A stretch of 64,000 bases of DNA from Actinomycetes bacterium (GCA_021827705.1 JAKAUQ010000004.1:1-64000); one strand, 5' to 3'; shown: positions 4,201 through 13,716, counted from the stretch's first letter. Notes: generated by a model from the sequence alone, not told the origin. Made by a program: numbers and translations.

Positions 4201-4979
4201 GCCGCGTCGCCATCGTCACCGGCGCCGCGCGGGGGATCGGCGCGGCCGTCGTGGACGAGCTGGTCCAGTCCGGCTACCGCGTGGTGGCCGTGGATCGCTG
4301 CCGCGACCTGCCCGGCGTGCCCTATGCCCTGGCGCGGCCCGCGGACCTCGAGGCCGTCGTCGCGCGCCACGGCGAGGCGGTGACCGGCCTGGTCGGCGAC
4401 GTGCGCAGCCGCACCGACATGGAGCTGGCCGTCGACACCGCGGTGCGGCGCTTCGGTCAGCTCGACGTGGTCGTGGGCGTCGCCGGGGTGCTGGCCGGAG
4501 GCGGTCCCGTGCACGAGGTGAGTGACGAGGCCCTCGAGGCGGTGTGGACGGTCAACGTGCTCGGCGTCCACCGGCTGATCCGCGCGGCCGTGCCGGTGCT
4601 CCAGGCCCGCGGCGCGGGCGCCCACCCGCGTATCGTCGCGGTGGCCTCCAGCGCCGCGCACCAGGCGCTGTATCACCTGGCGGCCTACTCGGCGGCCAAG
4701 CAGGCCGTCGTCGGGCTGGTGCGCGCGAGCGCCCGTGACCTGGCGCCCTACGGGATCACGGCCAACGTCGTGAGCCCCGGCTCGACGCGCACGGCGATGC
4801 TCGTGGCCTCAGCCGCCCTCTACGGCCTGAGCAGCGTGGAGGAGTTCGCGCGCCACCAGGCGCTGGGTCGCCTGCTCGAGCCCACTGAGGTGGCCGCGGC
4901 GATCGCCTGGCTGTGCTCGCCGGCCGCCTCGGGGGTCACGGGCGCCGACGTGCCCGTCGACGGAGGCTCGGTGGGCTAA
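4197..4979 (+). CDS. mycofactocin-coupled SDR family oxidoreductase
   Basis: 260-aa short-chain dehydrogenase/reductase. The N-terminus has TGAARGIG for NAD binding and the active site YSAAK with an upstream serine (VASSAAH). The stretch after the first strand (VVAVDRCRDLPGVPYALARP) is longer than in ordinary SDRs and resembles the insertion of mycofactocin-dependent SDRs, which hold NAD tightly and pass electrons to mycofactocin. The GTG start overlaps the mftD stop as GTGA. It is the likely dedicated dehydrogenase of this cluster; its alcohol or aldehyde substrate cannot be predicted. Confidence 0.85.
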   Translation: MSRVAIVTGAARGIGAAVVDELVQSGYRVVAVDRCRDLPGVPYALARPADLEAVVARHGEAVTGLVGDVRSRTDMELAVDTAVRRFGQLDVVVGVAGVLAGGGPVHEVSDEALEAVWTVNVLGVHRLIRAAVPVLQARGAGAHPRIVAVASSAAHQALYHLAAYSAAKQAVVGLVRASARDLAPYGITANVVSPGSTRTAMLVASAALYGLSSVEEFARHQALGRLLEPTEVAAAIAWLCSPAASGVTGADVPVDGGSVG

Positions 4980-4982
4980 CCT
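4977..4982 (+). promoter_or_regulatory. -10 element of homospermidine synthase gene, overlapping the SDR stop codon
   Basis: TAACCT fits the TAnnnT -10 pattern seen repeatedly in this window. Its first three bases are the TAA stop of the preceding SDR gene. A transcript would begin about 7 bp downstream and give the next gene a leader of roughly 20-25 nt. No clear -35 was seen. Confidence 0.4.
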
Positions 4983-5011
4983 CGAGACCCCCCGACGCGT
5001 TCGAAAGCGAG

Positions 5012-6472
5012 GTGCTCGTGCCCAGCCTCCCCCTGCCCGCTCGCCTGGTCGTCCTGGGCGCCGGGTCCGTTGCCCAGTGCGTCCTGCCAATGCTGCTCGA
5101 CCACTTCGGCCTCGATCCCGCGCACGTGAGCGTGCTCGAGAGCCGCGACAACCGGGACCGGCTGGCCGGAGTCCTGGCACGTGGCGTGCGCTACGAGACC
5201 GTGACCATCACGCGCGAGAACCTCGACGCCGAGCTGTCGGCGCGCCTGGGCCCCGGCGACGTCCTGATCGACCTGGCCTGGAACATCGGCCTGGCCGAGC
5301 TGCTGAGCTGGTGCCGCGCGGCGGGCGTGCGCTACGTGAACACTTCCATCGAGGTGTGGGACCCCTACGAGGACGCCAGCACGGTCCCGCCCCAGGACCG
5401 CACCCTCTACGTGCGCCACATGGCCCTGCGGCGCCAGATCGCGGGCTGGGGCGCCAATGACGGGCCCTCCGCGGTGGTCGAGCACGGGGCCAACCCCGGG
5501 CTGGTCAGCCACTTCGTCAAGCAGGCCCTGGTGGACATCGCCGCGGCGGTGGTGCGTGACGGGATCTGGCCCGAGCGCCACGACGCCCTGCGCGCGGCCC
5601 AAGACGGGGACGACTACGCCGAGATGGCCCACCTGCTCGAGGTGCGCACGATCCACATCGCCGAGCGCGACACGCAGATCAGCTCGGCCCCCAAGCGCCC
5701 CGGCGAGTTCGTCAACACCTGGTCGGTCGACGGGTTCTACGAGGAGGGCGTGGCCCCCGCCGAGATGGGCTGGGGAACCCACGAGCGCACCCTGCCGCCC
5801 CTGGCCCTGCGCCACGGCGAGGGGCCGCGCAACCAGATCTGCCTGGCGCGCATGGCCCACCAGACCCTGGTGCGCTCGGTCGTCCCCTCGGGTCCCATCG
5901 TGGGCATGGTGATCCGCCACGGCGAGGCCTTCACCATCAGCGACCACCTGACGGTGTGGCGCGACGGCGAGGCGGTCTACCGGCCCACGGTGCACTACGC
6001 CTACTGCCCCGCCGACGCCGCGTGGGCCAGCCTCGTCGAGCTCGAGGGCAACCAGTACGCGTACCCCGAGACCCAGCGCATCATGAACGACGACATCGTC
6101 GAGGGCCGCGACGAGCTGGGCGTGCTGCTGCTGGGCCACCCCTACCGGGCGTGGTGGACCGGGATGCTGACCTCGATCCAGGAGGCCCGGGCCGTGGCCC
6201 CGCACCAGAACGCCACGACGGTGCAGGTGGCCGCCTCGGTGGTGGGGGCGGTGGACTGGCTGCTGGGCCACCCCAACGCCGGCGTGCGGGTGCCCGACGA
6301 TCTGCCCTGGCGCGAGGTGCTCGAGGTCGCCGCGCCCTACCTGGGCACGCTGTGGTCCGGTCCCCTCGACTGGGATCCGGTGTCCACGCACGTCGACTGG
6401 TTCGACCGGTGGGCCGGCATCCACCTGGATGCCGCCGACCCCTGGCAGTTCGGCAACTTCCTGGTGCGCTAG
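5012..6472 (+). CDS. hss: homospermidine synthase
   Basis: 486-aa NAD-dependent enzyme of the saccharopine dehydrogenase-like family that makes homospermidine from putrescine and another polyamine. It opens with a Rossmann motif (RLVVLGAGSVAQC), then VLIDLAWNIGLAELL, YVNTSIEVWDPY and VVEHGANPGLVSHFVKQAL, all typical of bacterial homospermidine synthases, and its length fits the family. GTG at 5012 is preferred over the in-frame GTG at 5018 because GAAAGCGAG lies upstream. It follows the mycofactocin SDR by 32 bp and overlaps the convergent hydrolase stop through a shared CTAG. Confidence 0.88.
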   Translation: MLVPSLPLPARLVVLGAGSVAQCVLPMLLDHFGLDPAHVSVLESRDNRDRLAGVLARGVRYETVTITRENLDAELSARLGPGDVLIDLAWNIGLAELLSWCRAAGVRYVNTSIEVWDPYEDASTVPPQDRTLYVRHMALRRQIAGWGANDGPSAVVEHGANPGLVSHFVKQALVDIAAAVVRDGIWPERHDALRAAQDGDDYAEMAHLLEVRTIHIAERDTQISSAPKRPGEFVNTWSVDGFYEEGVAPAEMGWGTHERTLPPLALRHGEGPRNQICLARMAHQTLVRSVVPSGPIVGMVIRHGEAFTISDHLTVWRDGEAVYRPTVHYAYCPADAAWASLVELEGNQYAYPETQRIMNDDIVEGRDELGVLLLGHPYRAWWTGMLTSIQEARAVAPHQNATTVQVAASVVGAVDWLLGHPNAGVRVPDDLPWREVLEVAAPYLGTLWSGPLDWDPVSTHVDWFDRWAGIHLDAADPWQFGNFLVR

Positions 6473-7216: not shown

Positions 7217-7245
7217 TTGCGCGTTGATACCCCAGGGGGTATACT
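7217..7245 (+). promoter_or_regulatory. promoter of the sulfide/persulfide operon
   Basis: A -35 TTGCGC (7217-7222) and -10 TATACT (7240-7245) are separated by 17 bp, the best canonical promoter in the window. The predicted start is near 7252, giving a leader of about 37 nt before the ATG at 7289. The spacer and first bases of the -10 are covered by the palindromic operator at 7227-7242, so repressor binding would block RNA polymerase. Confidence 0.75.
7227..7242 (+). promoter_or_regulatory. CsoR/CstR-type operator
   Basis: ATACCCC-AG-GGGGTAT is a perfect 7-bp inverted repeat with a 2-bp centre. This G/C-tract palindrome flanked by ATA/TAT is the characteristic operator of CsoR-family repressors (CsoR, RcnR and CstR classes). 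It overlaps the promoter spacer and -10. The only CsoR-family gene in the window is the third gene of the operon it precedes (8909-9220), which predicts autoregulation. Confidence 0.85.
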
Positions 7246-7288
7246 GACACGGGGCCCACCGGGTCGACCGGTGCAGAAGGGGATCAAC

Positions 7289-8746
7289 ATGTCGAGAGTT
7301 GTCATCTTGGGGGCGGGCATCTCGGGCCATACGGCCGCGCTGCATCTGCGGCGCCGGCTGGGTCGGGCCCACGAGGTGGTGGTCGTGTCGCCGAATTCGC
7401 GCTGGAACTGGATCCCGTCCAACATCTGGGTGGGCGTGGGCAAGATGACCGCCGAGGACGTGACCTTCGAGCTGGCGCCGATCTACCGGCGCAAGGGGAT
7501 CGACTTCCACCAGGCCCTGGCCACCGAGCTGCACCCCGAGGGCGCGGGCGCGTCCGAGCAGCCCTACGTGACCGTGCGCTACACCGATCCCGCACGGGCC
7601 GGCGAGGTCGCCACGATCGACTACGACTACCTGATCAACGCCACCGGGCCCCGGCTGAACTTCGCGGCCACGCCCGGACTGGGCCCCGAGGGCCACACGG
7701 CGTCGGTGTGCACGCCCGCCCACGCGCTGGAGGCGTCGTCCCAGCTGGCCGACGTGGTCGCGCGGTTGCGCCGCGGCGAGCACCAGCGCCTGGTGATCGG
7801 CGTGGGGCACGGCACGTGCACCTGTGAGGGCGCGGCCTTCGAGTACACGTTCAACGTCGAGCACGAGCTGCGCATGGCCGGGGTGCGCGACCGGGCCGAG
7901 GTCGTCTACCTGACCAACGAGAGCGAGCTCGGCGACTTCGGGGTGGGGGGCATGGTCTTCACCCAGAACGGCTTCGAGACCACCAGCAAGCTGTGGACCG
8001 AGTCGCTGTTCCGCGAGCGCGACGTCCACGCCGTCGTCCAGGCCCACGTCGAGCGCGTGGAGCCCGGCGTCATCCACTACGAGCAGCTCGACGGGTCCCA
8101 CAACGAGCTGCCCTTCGACTTCGCGATGCTGCTGCCGCCGTTCCGGGGCGTCGACCTGGCGGCCTTCGACCGCGCCGGCACGGACATCACCAGCGAGGTC
8201 TTCGCACCCAACGGGTTCATGCGCGTGGACGCGGACTACCGGGCCAAGCCCTACGAGGAGTGGCGCGCGGACGACTGGCCCAAGACCTACGAGTCGGCCC
8301 GCCTCGCCAACGTCTTCGCCGTGGGCATCGCCTTCGCGCCCCCGCACCCGATCTCGCGTCCGAGGACCAGTCCCGACGGGACGGTGATCACGCCGTCTCC
8401 ACCGCGCACGGGCATGCCCTCGGGCGTGATGGGCAAGACCGTGGCGCGCACCATCGTGGACCGGATCCGCCAGGGCTCGCGCACCACGGCCCGGCGAGCC
8501 TCCATGGCCGACATGGGCGCGGCCTGCGTCGCCTCCTCGGGCATGGGCCTGCACCGGGGCACCGCCGCCTCGATGACGATGTACCCGGTAGTGCCCGACT
8601 TCGAGCGCTTCCCGGCCACCGGGCGCAGCACCAAGGACACCTTCGGCGAAATCGGCTTGGCCGGCCACTGGATCAAGTACATGCTCCACGTGCTGTTCCT
8701 CTACAAGGCCAAGGCCCGCCCCTTCTGGTACCTGATCCCCGAGTGA
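7289..8746 (+). CDS. sulfide:quinone oxidoreductase-like FAD flavoprotein
   Basis: 485-aa two-dinucleotide-binding flavoprotein. GAGISGHTAAL at residues 8-18 is the FAD Rossmann loop and DYLINATGPRLNF the second FAD contact. Candidate redox cysteines are Cys141, the CTC pair Cys177/Cys179 and Cys413. The C-terminal part holds a RPRTSPDG...PSGVMG segment and a hydrophobic, basic tail (WIKYMLHVLFLYKAK) suitable for membrane attachment, as in sulfide:quinone oxidoreductases that oxidise sulfide to sulfane sulfur and reduce quinone. The operator and the downstream CstR-like, rhodanese and CoA-disulfide reductase genes support this. SQR subtype is uncertain. ATG at 7289 leads directly into the Rossmann strand. 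Confidence 0.78.
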   Translation: MSRVVILGAGISGHTAALHLRRRLGRAHEVVVVSPNSRWNWIPSNIWVGVGKMTAEDVTFELAPIYRRKGIDFHQALATELHPEGAGASEQPYVTVRYTDPARAGEVATIDYDYLINATGPRLNFAATPGLGPEGHTASVCTPAHALEASSQLADVVARLRRGEHQRLVIGVGHGTCTCEGAAFEYTFNVEHELRMAGVRDRAEVVYLTNESELGDFGVGGMVFTQNGFETTSKLWTESLFRERDVHAVVQAHVERVEPGVIHYEQLDGSHNELPFDFAMLLPPFRGVDLAAFDRAGTDITSEVFAPNGFMRVDADYRAKPYEEWRADDWPKTYESARLANVFAVGIAFAPPHPISRPRTSPDGTVITPSPPRTGMPSGVMGKTVARTIVDRIRQGSRTTARRASMADMGAACVASSGMGLHRGTAASMTMYPVVPDFERFPATGRSTKDTFGEIGLAGHWIKYMLHVLFLYKAKARPFWYLIPE

Positions 8747-8761
8747 TGCTGGAGAACTGAC

Positions 8762-8908
8762 ATGGACAACGCCACCAACGACATCGCCTCAGCACCGCTG
8801 CCCACCCCCGAGACGCTGCACCGGCGCAATCGGCTGGGCTACCAGGTGGGCCGCTTCATCGCCCTCAACGTCCGCTTCGTCACCATGATCTTCAAAGGAG
8901 ACCATTAA
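8762..8908 (+). CDS. 48-aa conserved-looking small protein of the sulfide operon
   Basis: Reading from ATG 8762 to TAA 8906-8908 gives a 48-residue protein. The first half is polar and Pro-rich (DIASAPLPTPETLHRRNRLG). The second half (GYQVGRFIALNVRFVTMIFK) is an aromatic and basic amphipathic or short membrane-associating segment ending in GDH. It has no cysteine and I recognise no family. It begins 15 bp after the SQR-like gene behind a CTGGAG site and ends directly against the GTG of the repressor, whose AAAGGAG ribosome site lies inside its last codons. The tight fit between genes argues that it is real. A membrane or SQR-associated accessory role is possible but unproven. Confidence 0.6.
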   Translation: MDNATNDIASAPLPTPETLHRRNRLGYQVGRFIALNVRFVTMIFKGDH

Positions 8909-9220
8909 GTGCCCCACCCCCCAGCCACCCCCCACCATCCCGATGCCCTCGAGCACGTCCTCCAGGACCAAGAGCAGCTCCACGCCATCGTGCGCCGCCT
9001 CAAGCGCGCGCACGGCCAGCTCGGCGCGGTCGTGCGCATGCTCGAGGAGGGTCGCAGCTGTGAGGACGTCATCACGCAGATGGCCGCGGTGAACAAGGCC
9101 ATCAACACGGCGGCCTTCACGCTGATCTCGTCGAACCTGCGCGAGTGCATCATCGACCCGGCGATGGACGCCGACGAGGTGACCCTCAAGCTCCAGAGGC
9201 TCTTCTTGTCCCTGGCCTGA
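8909..9220 (+). CDS. CsoR/CstR-family transcriptional repressor
   Basis: 103-aa all-helical metal- or sulfur-sensing repressor (DUF156 family). The core RRLKRAHGQLGAVVRMLEEG is the DNA-binding first helix region. Cys51 and Cys80 are spaced 29 residues apart, as in Mycobacterium CsoR (Cys36/Cys65). The position of the third Cu(I) ligand, His61 in CsoR, is Asn76 here, which argues against copper sensing and for the persulfide-sensing CstR branch, where the two cysteines form di- to tetrasulfide links. GTG 8909 follows AAAGGAG at 8894-8900. It probably binds the palindrome at 7227-7242 and controls its own operon. Confidence 0.88.
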   Translation: MPHPPATPHHPDALEHVLQDQEQLHAIVRRLKRAHGQLGAVVRMLEEGRSCEDVITQMAAVNKAINTAAFTLISSNLRECIIDPAMDADEVTLKLQRLFLSLA

Positions 9221-9224
9221 CCGG

Positions 9225-9280
9225 TCCCACCCCCCAGATCCCCCCCAGACCCCCCACCCCCCAGACCCCCCCTACCCCCC
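9225..9280 (+). repeat. C-tract intergenic repeat
   Basis: The 77-bp gap between the repressor and the next gene is dominated by at least five runs of six or seven cytosines separated by A, AGAT, AGA or TA, with CCCCCCAGA recurring. The opposite strand therefore has successive G-runs able to form a G-quadruplex, while the coding strand could form an i-motif. A normal ribosome site follows at about 9287 (AAGGA). The function is unknown; an early-termination or pause role is possible. Confidence 0.7.
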
Positions 9281-9297
9281 GAACCAAGGAATCCCCT

Positions 9298-10941
9298 ATG
9301 CGCGTTGTCATCATTGGAGGTGTCGCCGGCGGCATGTCGGCGGCCGCGCGGCTGCGCCGGCTCGACCACGAGGCCGAGATCGTCGTGCTCGAGCGCAGCG
9401 GGCACGTCTCCTACGCCAACTGCGGCCTGCCCTACTACGTGGGCGGCGTCATCGAGCACGAGCGCCAGCTCCTGCTGCAGACCCCCGAGTCGCTGAACCA
9501 GCGCTTCCGTATCGACGTGCGCGTGCGCTCCGAGGTCACCGCCATCGACGCGCCGTCCCGGGTGGTCACCGTGAGCGAGCGGCGCACCGGCACGACCTAC
9601 GAGCTCGGCTACGACGCCCTCATCTTGAGCCCGGGGGCCAGCCCGGTACTCCCGCCGATCCCGGGCATCGAGCGCGCCCACGTGCTGCGCACGGTCGAGG
9701 ACGTCGCGGCGATCGCCGGGGCCGTCGACCAGAAGCCCCGCCGGGCCGTCGTGATCGGTGGCGGCTTCATCGGCTTGGAGGTGGCCGAGAACCTGACGCA
9801 CCGGGGCATCCCGGTCACCCTGGTCGAGGCGACGGGCCAGGTGCTGGCGCCCCTGGATCCCGAGCTCGCCGTGCTGGTGGCCGACGAGCTGCGCCGCCAC
9901 CACGTCGACGTTCGCCTGGACGAGTCGGTGACGGCGATCACGCCCACCGCCGTCGAGTTGGCCTCGGGCGCCACCGTGGGTGCGGACCTGGTCATCGCGG
10001 CCATCGGGGTGCGCCCCGACGTGACCCTGGCCCGGGGGGCGGGCCTGGCGATCGGCGCGCGCGGCGGCGTCGTCGTCGACGAGGTCCACCGCACCAGCGA
10101 CCCCCACATCTACGCGATCGGCGACGTGGCCGAGAAGGTCGACGCCCTCGACGGCGAGGCCACCTTGGTGCCGCTGGCCAACGTGGCCAACCGCCACGGT
10201 CGCGTCGTGGCCGACCACCTCGCGGGCCGCGTGACGCGGCCGGTGCCCACGATCGGCACCGCCATCGTCAAGGTCTTCGACCTGTCGGCCGCCGTGACCG
10301 GATGGAACGAGAAGCGCCTGGTCGCCGCGGGGCGACCGGTGCGTGCCCTGCACATCCACCCCTCGCACCACGCCGGCTACTACCCGGGCGCGGAGCGCCT
10401 GTCGCTCAAGCTGCTGATGGACCCGACCGACGGGACCATCCTGGGCGCCCAGGCCGTGGGCACCGAGGGCGTGGACAAGCGCATCGACGTGATCGCCACG
10501 GCCCTGCGCGCCGGCCTGCGGGCCCCCGAGCTGGCCGACCTGGAGCTGGCCTACGCGCCGCCCTTCGGCTCGGCCAAGGACCCGGTGAACCTGCTCGGCT
10601 ACGTGGCCGAGAACATGCTGAGCGGCCTGACCGACGTGGTCCAGTGGCATGAGGTCGACGACCACCGCGACCGGGGCTACCTGCTGGTCGACGTGCGCAC
10701 GCCCGGCGAGTTCGCCCGCGGCTCGGTCCCCGGGGCGATCAACGTGCCCGTCGACGACCTGCGCGATCGCCTCGACGAGCTGGACCGGCGCGACGTGGTC
10801 GTGATCTGCCAGGTGGGCCAGCGCGGCCACGTGGCCACGCGCCTGCTGCGCCAGCGCGACTTCAACGCCAAGAACCTCTCGGGCGGCTACCAGACCTGGC
10901 ACACCTCGCCGGCGGCGCGTGACACCGCCCTGGTCGGCTGA
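9298..10941 (+). CDS. CoA-disulfide reductase / persulfide reductase with C-terminal rhodanese domain
   Basis: 547-aa fusion. Residues 1 to about 440 form a class III pyridine nucleotide-disulfide oxidoreductase: GGVAGGMSAAARLRR for FAD, active-site Cys42 in SYANCGLPYY, AVVIGGGFIGLEVAE for NAD(P)H, and IYAIGDVAE near the second FAD contact. The last 90 residues are a rhodanese domain with catalytic Cys504 in the loop CQVGQRG. CoADR-rhodanese fusions reduce CoA persulfides or polysulfides with NAD(P)H and move sulfane sulfur, a logical step after sulfide:quinone oxidoreductase. ATG 9298 directly precedes the FAD-binding strand. Confidence 0.9.
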   Translation: MRVVIIGGVAGGMSAAARLRRLDHEAEIVVLERSGHVSYANCGLPYYVGGVIEHERQLLLQTPESLNQRFRIDVRVRSEVTAIDAPSRVVTVSERRTGTTYELGYDALILSPGASPVLPPIPGIERAHVLRTVEDVAAIAGAVDQKPRRAVVIGGGFIGLEVAENLTHRGIPVTLVEATGQVLAPLDPELAVLVADELRRHHVDVRLDESVTAITPTAVELASGATVGADLVIAAIGVRPDVTLARGAGLAIGARGGVVVDEVHRTSDPHIYAIGDVAEKVDALDGEATLVPLANVANRHGRVVADHLAGRVTRPVPTIGTAIVKVFDLSAAVTGWNEKRLVAAGRPVRALHIHPSHHAGYYPGAERLSLKLLMDPTDGTILGAQAVGTEGVDKRIDVIATALRAGLRAPELADLELAYAPPFGSAKDPVNLLGYVAENMLSGLTDVVQWHEVDDHRDRGYLLVDVRTPGEFARGSVPGAINVPVDDLRDRLDELDRRDVVVICQVGQRGHVATRLLRQRDFNAKNLSGGYQTWHTSPAARDTALVG

Positions 10942-10980
10942 CCCCACGCTCTCAACACCACCGAGAAAGGAAACAACATC

Positions 10981-11151
10981 ATGTGCAGTCGAGTGAACTG
11001 CCGCAGCTGCGGCAAGCCAACCTGGAGTGGCTGTGGCAACCACGTCGAGCAGGCCCTGGCCGGCGTCGCCCACGCCGACCGCTGCCAGTGCCGCGAGACG
11101 GGCGGCGGCGGCAGCGCCAGCGGCTTCATGTCGCGCCTGCTGGGCCGCTAG
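10981..11151 (+). CDS. 56-aa Cys-rich small protein
   Basis: ATG 10981 to TAG 11149-11151, preceded by a GAAAGGAAAC ribosome site. The protein has seven cysteines: Cys2, CRSC (7/10), Cys18 within WSGCGNHVEQAL, and CQC (35/37), plus His21 and His31. This looks like a zinc- or thiol-binding miniature domain. Similar short CxxCGKxTWxGCGxHV proteins occur as hypothetical genes in actinobacteria, from memory. A Gly/Ser linker and a basic tail (FMSRLLGR) follow. It is the last gene of the sulfide operon, 39 bp after the rhodanese fusion. A sulfane-sulfur or metal carrier role is a guess from the context. Confidence 0.75.
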   Translation: MCSRVNCRSCGKPTWSGCGNHVEQALAGVAHADRCQCRETGGGGSASGFMSRLLGR

Positions 11152-11164
11152 TCGCGACCTGACC

Positions 11165-11205
11165 CCCCGCCGCGGGCCGCGACCGACACCGGGCCCGCGG
11201 CGGGG
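11165..11205 (+). terminator. terminator-like hairpin after the sulfide operon
   Basis: A perfect 13-bp GC stem (CCCCGCCGCGGGC at 11165-11177 with GCCCGCGGCGGGG at 11193-11205) encloses a 15-nt loop, 14 bp after the 56-aa gene stop. There is no U-tract, as is common in very GC-rich actinobacteria. It separates the sulfide operon from cydA. Confidence 0.65.
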
Positions 11206-11267
11206 CCCTCCGGGGCACATGGGACTTTCGTCCCGGTACCCCACCGGCGCCGTGTCGGCGGGGTGGC

Positions 11268-11273
11268 TAGGTT
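11268..11273 (+). promoter_or_regulatory. -10 element of the cydABDC operon (leaderless)
   Basis: TAGGTT lies 7 nt upstream of GTG 11281, so transcription would begin at the start codon. This decides the cydA start, because the upstream GTG at 11263 would place the -10 within the gene. No good -35 is visible. Confidence 0.5.
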
Positions 11274-11280
11274 CGCGCTC

Positions 11281-12675
11281 GTGGGTGCTCTCTTAGCGGG
11301 AGTCTCGACTCTGACGCTCGCGCGCTGGCAGTTCGCGGTCACGACCGTCTTTCACTTCCTCTTCGTCCCCCTCACCATCGGCCTCGGCCTGCTGGTGGCC
11401 ATCATGCAGACGGCGGCTCAGCGCACGAAGGACCCCGCCTGGGAGCGCGCCACGCGCTTCTTTGGGACGCTGTTCCTGGTTAACTTCGCCATCGGCGTGG
11501 TCACCGGCATTGTCCAGGAGTTCCAGTTCGGGATGGACTGGTCGCGCTACTCGGTGTTCGTGGGCAACATCTTCGGCGCCCCCCTGGCCATCGAGGGCCT
11601 GCTGGCGTTCTTCTTGGAGTCCACGTTCCTCGGGGTGTGGATCTTCGGGCGCGGCCGGGTCAGCCCGCGCATCCACCTGGCGTCGATCTGGCTGGCCAGC
11701 ATCGGCACGATACTGTCGGCCGCCTTCATCTTGGCGGCCAACGCCTGGATGCAGCACCCGGTGGGCTACCGGATCGACGCGCGCACCCACCAGGCGGTCA
11801 TGTCGAGCTTCTGGGCCGTCATGACCAACTCGACCTTCGTGCTGGAGTTCGGCCACGTCCTGTTCGCCGCCTTCTTGACCGGGTCGGCGTTCCTGCTGGG
11901 GGTCGCCGCCTGGCACCTGCACCGGGGCCACGACACGGAGGCCTTCGGGCGCGCCGCGCGCGTCGGTGTGGTGGTCGTGCTCGTCGCCTCGGTGGGCACG
12001 ATCTTCCTCGGCGACAGCCAGGGCAAGCAGCTCGAGACCCAGCAGCCCATGAAGATGGCGGCCGCCGAGGCGCTCTACACGACCCAGCACGGTGCGAGCT
12101 TCTCGCTGCTCACCATCGGCGACCTGGCGGGGAACCCGATCTTCCAGATCCGCGTGCCCCACATCTTGAGCGTGCTGGCGACCAACACGTGGAACGGGAA
12201 GGTTGACGGCATCCACCAGCTCCAGGCCGCGGCCGAGCGCCGCTACGGCGCGGGCAGCTACGTCCCGGTGATCTGGCTGCTCTACTGGACGTTCCGCATC
12301 ATGGTGGGCCTGGGCTTCGCGCTGCTGGCCCTGGGCGTGCTGGGCCTGTGGCTGTGGCGACGACGACGACTCGACACGACCGGGTGGTACCTGCGCGCGG
12401 CGACCTGGCTGCTGCTGGCGCCCTTCGTGGCCAACACGGCGGGCTGGATCTTCACCGAGGTCGGTCGCCAGCCCTGGGTCGTCTACGGCCTCCTCAAGAC
12501 CTCGCGCGCGGTCTCGGTGCTGGCGCCCGGCTACGTCGCGGCCAGCCTGATCGGCTTCACCGCGATCTACAGCGTGCTCGCCGTCGTCGAGATCGGCCTC
12601 ATGGTGCGCCTGGGCCGGGTGCCCCCGGCCCTCGAGGCGCCCGCCGCTCCCGACGAGCACGGGCTGATCTACTAG
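11281..12675 (+). CDS. cydA: cytochrome bd ubiquinol oxidase subunit I
   Basis: 464-aa integral membrane subunit carrying hemes b558, b595 and d. Near the N-terminus LARWQFAVTTVFHFLFVPLTIG contains the conserved His25 heme ligand. The quinol-site region has GDSQGKQLETQQPMKMAAAEA, and the signature GRQPWVVYG occurs in the C-terminal third. About nine hydrophobic segments are seen. The Q-loop is short, the L-lacking form found in most bacteria. Bd oxidases reduce O2 with high affinity and resist sulfide, which matters next to the sulfide operon. The start is placed at GTG 11281 from the -10 spacing; GTG 11263 is the alternative. Confidence 0.93.
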   Translation: MGALLAGVSTLTLARWQFAVTTVFHFLFVPLTIGLGLLVAIMQTAAQRTKDPAWERATRFFGTLFLVNFAIGVVTGIVQEFQFGMDWSRYSVFVGNIFGAPLAIEGLLAFFLESTFLGVWIFGRGRVSPRIHLASIWLASIGTILSAAFILAANAWMQHPVGYRIDARTHQAVMSSFWAVMTNSTFVLEFGHVLFAAFLTGSAFLLGVAAWHLHRGHDTEAFGRAARVGVVVVLVASVGTIFLGDSQGKQLETQQPMKMAAAEALYTTQHGASFSLLTIGDLAGNPIFQIRVPHILSVLATNTWNGKVDGIHQLQAAAERRYGAGSYVPVIWLLYWTFRIMVGLGFALLALGVLGLWLWRRRRLDTTGWYLRAATWLLLAPFVANTAGWIFTEVGRQPWVVYGLLKTSRAVSVLAPGYVAASLIGFTAIYSVLAVVEIGLMVRLGRVPPALEAPAAPDEHGLIY

Positions 12676-12684
12676 GAGGTGGCG

Positions 12685-13716
12685 GTGGCGGTCGTGGCAG
12701 CAGGCCCCAGCGGGCTCCAGCAGCTCTGGTTCTTCCTGATCGCCGTGCTGTGGCTGGGGTACTTCTTCTTGGAGGGCTTCGACTTCGGCGTGGGGATCCT
12801 GCTGCCCTTCGTCAGCCGCGACGACACGGACCGCCGGATCGTCGTCAACACCATCGGGCCGGTCTGGGACGGCAACGAGGTGTGGCTGATCGTCGCGGGC
12901 GGCGCGACCTTCGCGGCGTTCCCGACGTGGTACGCGACATTGTTCTCGGGCTTCTACCTGGCCCTGTTCGTGCTGCTGGCGGCGCTGATCTTCCGGGGGA
13001 TGGCCTTCGAGCTGCGCCACCGGCGCGACGACGCCCGCTGGCGGGCTCGCTGGGACCAGGCGCTGTTCTGGGGATCGGCGGTGCCGGCCTTCTTGTGGGG
13101 CGTCGCCTTCGCCGACTTCGTCCACGGCGTGCCGCTGGGCCCCCACCACGTCATGGAGGGCACGGTGCTCGACCTCGTCAAGCCCTACGCCCTGGTCGGG
13201 GGCCTGGCCACGCTGTCGCTGTTCAGCCTGCACGGCGCGGCGTACCTGGGCTTGAAGACCGAGGGCGCGCTGCGCGAGCGGGCCCGCGAGGCCGGTAAGC
13301 GCCTGGCCCCCGTGGCCCTGGTCGCCGTGGGCGCGCTGCTGACCTGGACCTACCTCAGCGCCCACGCGTGGCACCACGCGGGCCTGGTGCCGCCGCCGCT
13401 GCCCATCTTCGGGCTCGGGGCCCTCGCCGTGGTCGGCTGGCTCATCCACGAGCGCCAGGAGGGGTGGGCGTTCGTGGCCACGGCCGTGGCCGTCGTGGCC
13501 CTCTTCGCCACGCTCCTGCTCAACTTGTACCCCGACGTCCTGGTGTCGTCGCTGCGCGCGGCCAACGACCTGACCATCGCCGAGAGCGCCTCGCAGCGCT
13601 ACACGCTCGAGGTCATGAGCTGGGTGGCCCTGATCTTCACCCCGTTGGTCCTGGCCTACCAGGCGTGGTCCTACTGGGTCTTTCGCCAGCGGGTGCGGCG
13701 GCCCGACGACCACTAG
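12685..13716 (+). CDS. cydB: cytochrome bd ubiquinol oxidase subunit II
   Basis: 343-aa multi-pass membrane subunit partnering CydA. The N-terminus WFFLIAVLWLGYFFLEGFDFGVGILLPF is diagnostic of CydB, followed by VWDGNEVWLIVAGGATFAAFP. AGGAGG (12674-12679) sits 5 nt before GTG 12685, which is therefore preferred over in-frame GTGs at 12679 and 12694. It follows cydA by 9 bp and precedes cydD by 4 bp. Confidence 0.94.
   Translation: MAVVAAGPSGLQQLWFFLIAVLWLGYFFLEGFDFGVGILLPFVSRDDTDRRIVVNTIGPVWDGNEVWLIVAGGATFAAFPTWYATLFSGFYLALFVLLAALIFRGMAFELRHRRDDARWRARWDQALFWGSAVPAFLWGVAFADFVHGVPLGPHHVMEGTVLDLVKPYALVGGLATLSLFSLHGAAYLGLKTEGALRERAREAGKRLAPVALVAVGALLTWTYLSAHAWHHAGLVPPPLPIFGLGALAVVGWLIHERQEGWAFVATAVAVVALFATLLLNLYPDVLVSSLRAANDLTIAESASQRYTLEVMSWVALIFTPLVLAYQAWSYWVFRQRVRRPDDH

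What the first reader, a model, noticed from the sequence alone, without database searches (positions are those of the whole stretch)
7217..11151. A compact CstR-controlled sulfide/persulfide operon with two orphan small proteins
Seen: promoter overlapped by a perfect ATACCCC-AG-GGGGTAT operator, then SQR-like flavoprotein, 48-aa protein, CsoR/CstR repressor, CoADR-rhodanese fusion, 56-aa Cys-rich protein and a terminator-like hairpin. Known: CstR represses sulfide-oxidation genes (sqr, persulfide dioxygenase, rhodanese) in Staphylococcus. Inferred: this is an autoregulated sulfide detoxification or sulfide-respiring unit in which reduction by CoADR-Rhd replaces a persulfide dioxygenase. The two small genes have no assigned role and are part of the unit.
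Basis: partly seen in the sequence, partly recalled or inferred. Interest (0 to 1): 0.75.

Follow-up and report, generated by a model that had tools for sequence, protein, structure and literature searches.

The report
Persulfide-controlled sulfide operon, two microproteins
An actinobacterium (family Acidimicrobiaceae by its nearest named relatives) has a sulfide-handling operon under a repressor of the persulfide-sensing type, and two tiny, unnamed proteins in it turn out to be conserved parts of sulfide handling across Actinobacteria rather than stray reading frames.

Summary
At 7227-7242 a perfect ATACCCC-AG-GGGGTAT operator precedes sqr (7289-8746), sp48 (8762-8908), a CsoR-family repressor (8909-9220), CoADR-rhodanese (9298-10941) and sp56 (10981-11151); cydAB follows. 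The repressor keeps both CstR cysteines and lacks the Cu-binding His (Asn/Ser/Gly in 24 homologues). The operator fits the tested sulfane-sulfur operator of Streptomyces ScCsoR (ATACCn6GGTAT). The genome holds five such sites (control 0); besides sqr they precede a rhodanese, a YgaP-like protein, redoxin-DsbD and glmU. So a CstR-type persulfide regulon is well supported; effector and binding are untested.

The small genes are real. sp48 follows sqr in 80 of 80 named loci, with or without the repressor, so it belongs to SQR. sp56 (C2, C7, C10, C18, H21, C35 invariant) occurs in 36 of 296 sampled Actinomycetota genomes, has its own operator in several, and sits beside CsoR-type regulators, rhodaneses or dioxygenase-like genes. 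Both show purifying selection and match no Pfam/NCBIfam family.

"CoADR replaces the dioxygenase" is only partly supported: relatives carry both, and a distant ETHE1-like protein remains here. The circuit is a known kind; the new parts are the combination and the two protein families.

The parts
7227..7242 (.). CsoR/CstR-family operator ATACCCCAGGGGGTAT overlapping a TATACT -10-like element (7240-7245)
   Evidence: same type of site within 150 nt upstream of SQR in 48 of 79 homologous loci, about 0.013 expected per locus; matches the ScCsoR motif ATACCn6GGTAT (PMC7533328)
7289..8746 (+). SQR: sulfide:quinone oxidoreductase, 485 aa, C141/C179/C413
   Evidence: PF07992; phmmer best hit A. ferrooxidans SQR, E 6e-36, redox Cys aligned; AF2 model matches SQR structures first, TM 0.83 by target; C141, C179, C413 invariant in 39 homologues
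8762..8908 (+). sp48: 48-aa SQR-linked small protein, cationic amphipathic C-terminal helix predicted
   Evidence: directly behind SQR in 80/80 named loci; pN/pS 0.46 against above 1 in the other frames; helix at residues about 25-44, low pLDDT; amphipathicity; no Pfam/NCBIfam match
8909..9220 (+). CstR-type CsoR-family repressor (GTG start), C51 and C80, Asn76 in place of the CsoR His
   Evidence: PF02583; PDB hits include 7mq1, alignment to CsoR 4adz; 24-sequence alignment; only CsoR-family gene found in the genome
9298..10941 (+). CoA-disulfide/CoA-persulfide reductase fused to rhodanese, C42 and C504
   Evidence: 3icr E 4e-171, 8a56 CoAPR E 4e-160, both Cys aligned with 8a56; PF07992, PF02852, PF00581
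10981..11151 (+). sp56: 56-aa Cys/His-rich small protein (C2, C7, C10, C18, H21, C35)
   Evidence: no family
11166..11204 (+). G+C-rich hairpin behind sp56, without T-run
11263..12675 (+). cydA, cytochrome bd subunit I (start codon uncertain)
   Evidence: PF01654; neighbour of the unit in several relatives
12679..13716 (+). cydB, cytochrome bd subunit II
   Evidence: PF02322, TIGR00203 above cut-off

Best explanation
An autoregulated persulfide-stress operon. A CstR-type repressor holds the promoter at 7227-7242; when H2S is oxidised, sulfane sulfur (persulfide or polysulfide) bridges C51 and C80 of the repressor and releases it (inferred from CstR and ScCsoR). SQR then oxidises H2S at the membrane and passes electrons to the quinone pool and on to the adjacent cytochrome bd oxidase (inferred). 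sp48 is a dedicated small partner of SQR, most likely a membrane-surface anchor or subunit built on a cationic amphipathic helix (linkage shown, role inferred). CoADR-rhodanese takes sulfane sulfur from CoA persulfide and reduces it with NAD(P)H, protecting the CoA pool (inferred from E. faecalis CoAPR). sp56 is a small Cys/His protein of the same regulon, probably a Zn-bound or persulfide-carrying sulfur acceptor (regulon membership supported, chemistry inferred). The same operator also precedes a rhodanese, a YgaP-like membrane protein, a redoxin-DsbD pair and glmU elsewhere in the genome.
For: CstR signature: C51 and C80 conserved, His replaced in all 24 homologues, Asn aligned with SpCstR Asn. 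Operator fits the tested ScCsoR site. Five genomic ATACCN6GGTAT sites, control 0, before this operon, rhodanese, YgaP-TM, redoxin-DsbD_TM and glmU. In the genus, 14 genomes with a close CstR hold 51 TACCCN4GGGTA sites (reversed control 25); 11 without one hold 8 (control 16). sp48 behind SQR in 80/80 loci. sp56 with its own operator in genus members L209, L220, L228 and in 11 of 29 phylum-wide loci, upstream or over the start codon; on plasmids of Rhodococcus, Arthrobacter and Curtobacterium it is flanked by a CsoR-type regulator and PDO-like MBL, rhodanese, TauE or MMPL genes. Purifying selection on both.
Against: No binding, transcription or enzyme data. CoADR reduces what SQR makes, so the two together could cycle sulfur at the cost of NAD(P)H. 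glmU as a target is unexpected. The sp48 model is of low confidence, and the sp56 model has no structural match. 31 of 79 SQR loci show no site of the searched form within 150 nt. The hairpin before cydA may separate cydAB from the operon.
Confidence: 0.78

Rival explanations
1. The repressor is a metal (Cu, Ni or Co) or formaldehyde sensor of the CsoR/RcnR/FrmR family and the neighbours are incidental.
For: PF02583 also covers metal sensors; NCBIfam scores RicR 47, FrmR 38 and RcnR 34 bits, all far below their cut-offs. GC-tract operators are shared by CsoR proteins.
Against: The Cu-ligand His is Asn, Ser or Gly in all 24 homologues; the operator-flanking genes are mostly sulfur or thiol genes; no metal efflux gene was recognised at the sites examined.
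Confidence: 0.06
2. Energy-conserving sulfide oxidation, or a sulfur-shuttled bypass: SQR feeds quinone and cytochrome bd while CoADR returns sulfur to H2S with NAD(P)H, so H2S carries electrons from NAD(P)H to the quinone pool.
For: SQR, CoADR-Rhd and cydAB are adjacent here and in several relatives; SQR-sp48-cydAB without CoADR exists in L083 and L085.
Against: Repressor control and thioredoxin, redoxin and rhodanese co-targets point to stress defence; Sox or Dsr clusters were not looked for genome-wide.
Confidence: 0.15
3. sp48 and sp56 are chance ORFs in GC-rich DNA.
For: Small size, no Pfam or NCBIfam match.
Against: Conserved across Actinomycetota in sequence and place; pN/pS 0.46 and 0.26 against above 1 in the other frames.
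Confidence: 0.01

Closest known systems
Streptomyces coelicolor ScCsoR circuit (PMC7533328)
   Same: Actinobacterial CsoR-family sulfane-sulfur repressor; 16-bp ATACCn6GGTAT operator; rhodanese among the targets
   Different: Targets there are a type III persulfide dioxygenase, rhodanese and sulfite transporter; no SQR and no CoADR-Rhd named; sp48 and sp56 not mentioned in the passages read
Enterococcus faecalis cst-like operon with CstR and CoAPR (PMC9405070; structure 8a56)
   Same: CstR controls a CoADR-rhodanese with the two catalytic Cys (C42 and C508 there; C42 and C504 here)
   Different: RhdA and RhdB there; here SQR, sp48, sp56 and adjacent cydAB
Staphylococcus aureus cst operon (from general knowledge) and Bacillus licheniformis yrkD cluster (PMC9918477)
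   Same: CsoR-family repressor controlling sqr and sulfurtransferases
   Different: Those contain a persulfide dioxygenase; none in this operon
YjlC-YjlD of Bacillus subtilis (model 9a63, rank 36)
   Same: By recall, YjlD is a type II NADH dehydrogenase of the SQR superfamily with a partner YjlC: a precedent for a partner protein of such an enzyme
   Different: sp48 was not compared with YjlC; the analogy is functional only

Membership tests
CstR (persulfide-sensing CsoR family) | CsoR/RcnR fold domain | tested here: met
   PF02583 76.2 bits against cut-off 22.8
CstR (persulfide-sensing CsoR family) | two conserved Cys with the intervening Cu-ligand His absent | tested here: met
   C51 invariant, C80 in at least 90%, position 76 N/S/G in 24 homologues (alignment)
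CstR (persulfide-sensing CsoR family) | GC-tract palindromic operator before sulfur genes | tested here: met
CstR (persulfide-sensing CsoR family) | release from DNA by persulfide or polysulfide, not by Cu(I) | not testable with these tools
   needs purified protein
SQR | SQR fold and redox-active Cys | tested here: met
   subtype not assigned (NCBIfam SQR_III selenoprotein model 56 bits against cut-off 525)
SQR | sulfide:quinone activity | not testable with these tools
   needs enzyme assay
CoA-persulfide / NADH persulfide reductase (CoADR-Rhd) | CoADR and rhodanese domains, each with its catalytic Cys | tested here: met
CoA-persulfide / NADH persulfide reductase (CoADR-Rhd) | preference for CoASSH and NAD(P)H | not testable with these tools
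   needs kinetics
S. aureus-type cst operon | persulfide dioxygenase in the operon | tested here: not met
   no MBL-fold gene among the genes of 7217-13716; genome lacks the PDO-rhodanese fusion but has an ETHE1-like MBL protein elsewhere

The most novel reading that the evidence does not exclude
Two unrecognised actinobacterial protein families: sp48, an obligate small subunit or membrane anchor of a widespread actinobacterial SQR, and sp56, a Cys/His-rich small protein that acts as a dedicated sulfane-sulfur carrier or Zn-thiolate acceptor of the CstR/CsoR regulon and is often left unannotated.
Probability: 0.45. Interest if true: 0.7.

Novelty: new variant of a known kind. Interest (0 to 1): 0.55.

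Why it matters
SQR is generally treated as an enzyme of one kind of polypeptide; a small protein encoded behind it in every one of 80 loci, Mycobacterium included, suggests a missing partner. sp56 gives a testable new component of bacterial persulfide homeostasis and a marker for the regulon. Both are short enough to be left out of routine annotation: most of the 40 plasmid records listed show no feature under the sp56 match, although the plasmid gene table used is itself incomplete.

Tried and rejected
Standard promoter and terminator scans found nothing. Phylum-wide HMM search with the genus-only sp48 profile found only the own copy; this is at least in part a sensitivity limit, since inspection behind SQR found sp48 in all 80 named loci. 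A read-through SQR-sp48 fusion (TGA read as W) for AF2 gave a good SQR fold but placed sp48 with low confidence, so no contact is claimed. Fold search with sp56 gave no match with E below 6. sp48 has no tblastn match on plasmids. 'sp48 belongs to the CstR unit' was rejected: it follows SQR without CstR (L083, L085, L091). The TusA site in the own genome (TACCCGTATGGGTA, L162) is kept only as a weak candidate because it does not fit ATACCN6GGTAT. Literature searches found no description of either small protein, but only open-licence papers are held and small proteins are hard to search for by name.

Full report
WHAT IS THERE. The window belongs to a 1.78-Mb, 97%-complete genome whose closest named SQR relatives are mostly Acidimicrobiaceae or unclassified actinobacterial MAGs.

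ENZYMES. SQR finds A. ferrooxidans SQR first in the PDB (E 6e-36); the AF2 model matches SQR structures ahead of type II NADH dehydrogenases and flavocytochrome c; C141, C179 and C413 are invariant in 39 homologues. It scores far below the one NCBIfam SQR model it meets, so no subtype is assigned. CoADR-Rhd matches B. anthracis CoADR-RHD (4e-171) and E. faecalis CoA-persulfide reductase (4e-160), with both catalytic cysteines (C42, C504) aligned. In E. faecalis CstR controls that enzyme, which reduces CoASSH (PMC9405070).

REPRESSOR AND REGULON. The repressor is the only CsoR-family gene found in the genome. Its two Cys are conserved, while the position of the CsoR His is Asn, Ser or Gly in all 24 homologues aligned. 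The operator fits the motif ATACCn6GGTAT of S. coelicolor ScCsoR, which was shown to sense sulfane sulfur (PMC7533328). The genome has five such sites and none of the reversed control: before this operon, a 108-aa rhodanese, a YgaP-like TM protein, a redoxin-DsbD_TM pair, and glmU. The glmU site recurs in relative G002 (L222), and genes of the redoxin type follow the site in L217 and, by eye, L230. A looser site lies near a TusA gene. In relatives such sites precede SQR, CstR, rhodanese, YgaP-TM, thioredoxin, MMPL, PIG-L and sp56 alone. Genomes with a close CstR carry 51 loose sites in 14 genomes (reversed control 25); those without carry 8 in 11 (control 16) (my tally; some of these genomes are incomplete). 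Binding and effector are not shown for this protein.

SP48. Among 80 named loci fetched by SQR similarity alone, sp48 lies directly behind SQR in all: 69 by tblastn within 250 nt, the other 11 by reading the translations. These span Acidimicrobiaceae, Mycobacterium, Mycolicibacter, Propionibacteriaceae, Cellulomonas, Cryobacterium and Boudabousia. The 80 are the best of at least 582 confirmed SQR relatives, so more distant ones were not examined. sp48 is present where no CstR is nearby and where cydAB follows at once (L083, L085). P14, R22, Q28, R31 and F32 are invariant in 39 sequences. All 39 are net cationic with an amphipathic C-terminal helix, though the excess over shuffles is modest for single sequences. 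A membrane-surface anchor or SQR subunit is the likeliest role (inference). AF2 gives the helix at low confidence and no reliable contact.

SP56. It was found in 36 of 296 sampled Actinomycetota genomes. C2, C7, C10, G17, C18, G19, H21 and C35 are invariant in 41 sequences. In the genus it follows CoADR or stands alone under its own operator (L209, L220, L228); 11 of 29 phylum-wide loci have a site within 150 nt upstream or over the start codon (5 upstream, 6 more over the start codon; about 0.02 expected per locus). Plasmid homologues (63 records, all of actinobacterial genera) lie, in the four regions read, with a CsoR-type regulator and PDO-like MBL, rhodanese, TauE, DsrE, MMPL or DUF2892 genes. 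A Zn-thiolate or persulfide carrier is inferred.

SELECTION. pN/pS is 0.46 (sp48) and 0.26 (sp56 core) over 78 pairs each; other frames exceed 1. For some pairs synonymous change is saturated, and sp48 of the window against L089 and L129 gives ratios near 1, so the figures are averages over related sequences.

PDO QUESTION. This genome, G002, G020 and G021 show no PDO-rhodanese fusion, while most relatives do, CstR-bearing ones included. A 238-aa MBL protein (G000:C28), conserved in nearly all members of the genus and closest in the PDB to MBL proteins of the persulfide-dioxygenase/ETHE1 group, remains; no operator of the searched form lies by it. So replacement of oxidation by reduction is possible here but not shown.

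VERDICT. A CstR-type persulfide regulon in a new combination (SQR, CoADR-Rhd, neighbouring cytochrome bd, no PDO in the operon), with two conserved but unnamed microproteins: a new variant of a known kind.

Noticed in passing
L160 / G000:C13:69630-69645; L222: An operator about 50-70 bp before glmU in this genome and in relative G002; with PIG-L (MshB-like) genes under the same operator in other relatives, a link to mycothiol or UDP-GlcNAc supply is conceivable.
   Followed up: partly
L053, L055, L056, L063, L064, L070: In other actinobacterial orders the operator overlaps the ATG of sp56 (GGGTATG), as if it sat at the start of a leaderless transcript.
   Followed up: no
L035, L036, L038, L039, L040, L121, L124, L138, L139: Relatives carry two or three CstR paralogues within about 20 kb, in a sulfur island with MMPL transporters, PIG-L, thioredoxin, VKOR and sp56.
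   Followed up: partly
L094:2200-2598, L110:9939-10328: An extra gene encoding a lipoprotein-like rhodanese is inserted between CstR and CoADR in some relatives.
   Followed up: partly
window 4976-6472; L078-L082, L084, L152: A saccharopine-dehydrogenase-like gene lies upstream of SQR here and in the closest relatives; no functional link is evident.
   Followed up: no
L078:11810-12586: A methyltransferase gene sits between sp56 and cydA in relatives (also L033, L084, L089 by size of ORF); in the window it is missing and cydA follows sp56 after about 110 nt.
   Followed up: partly
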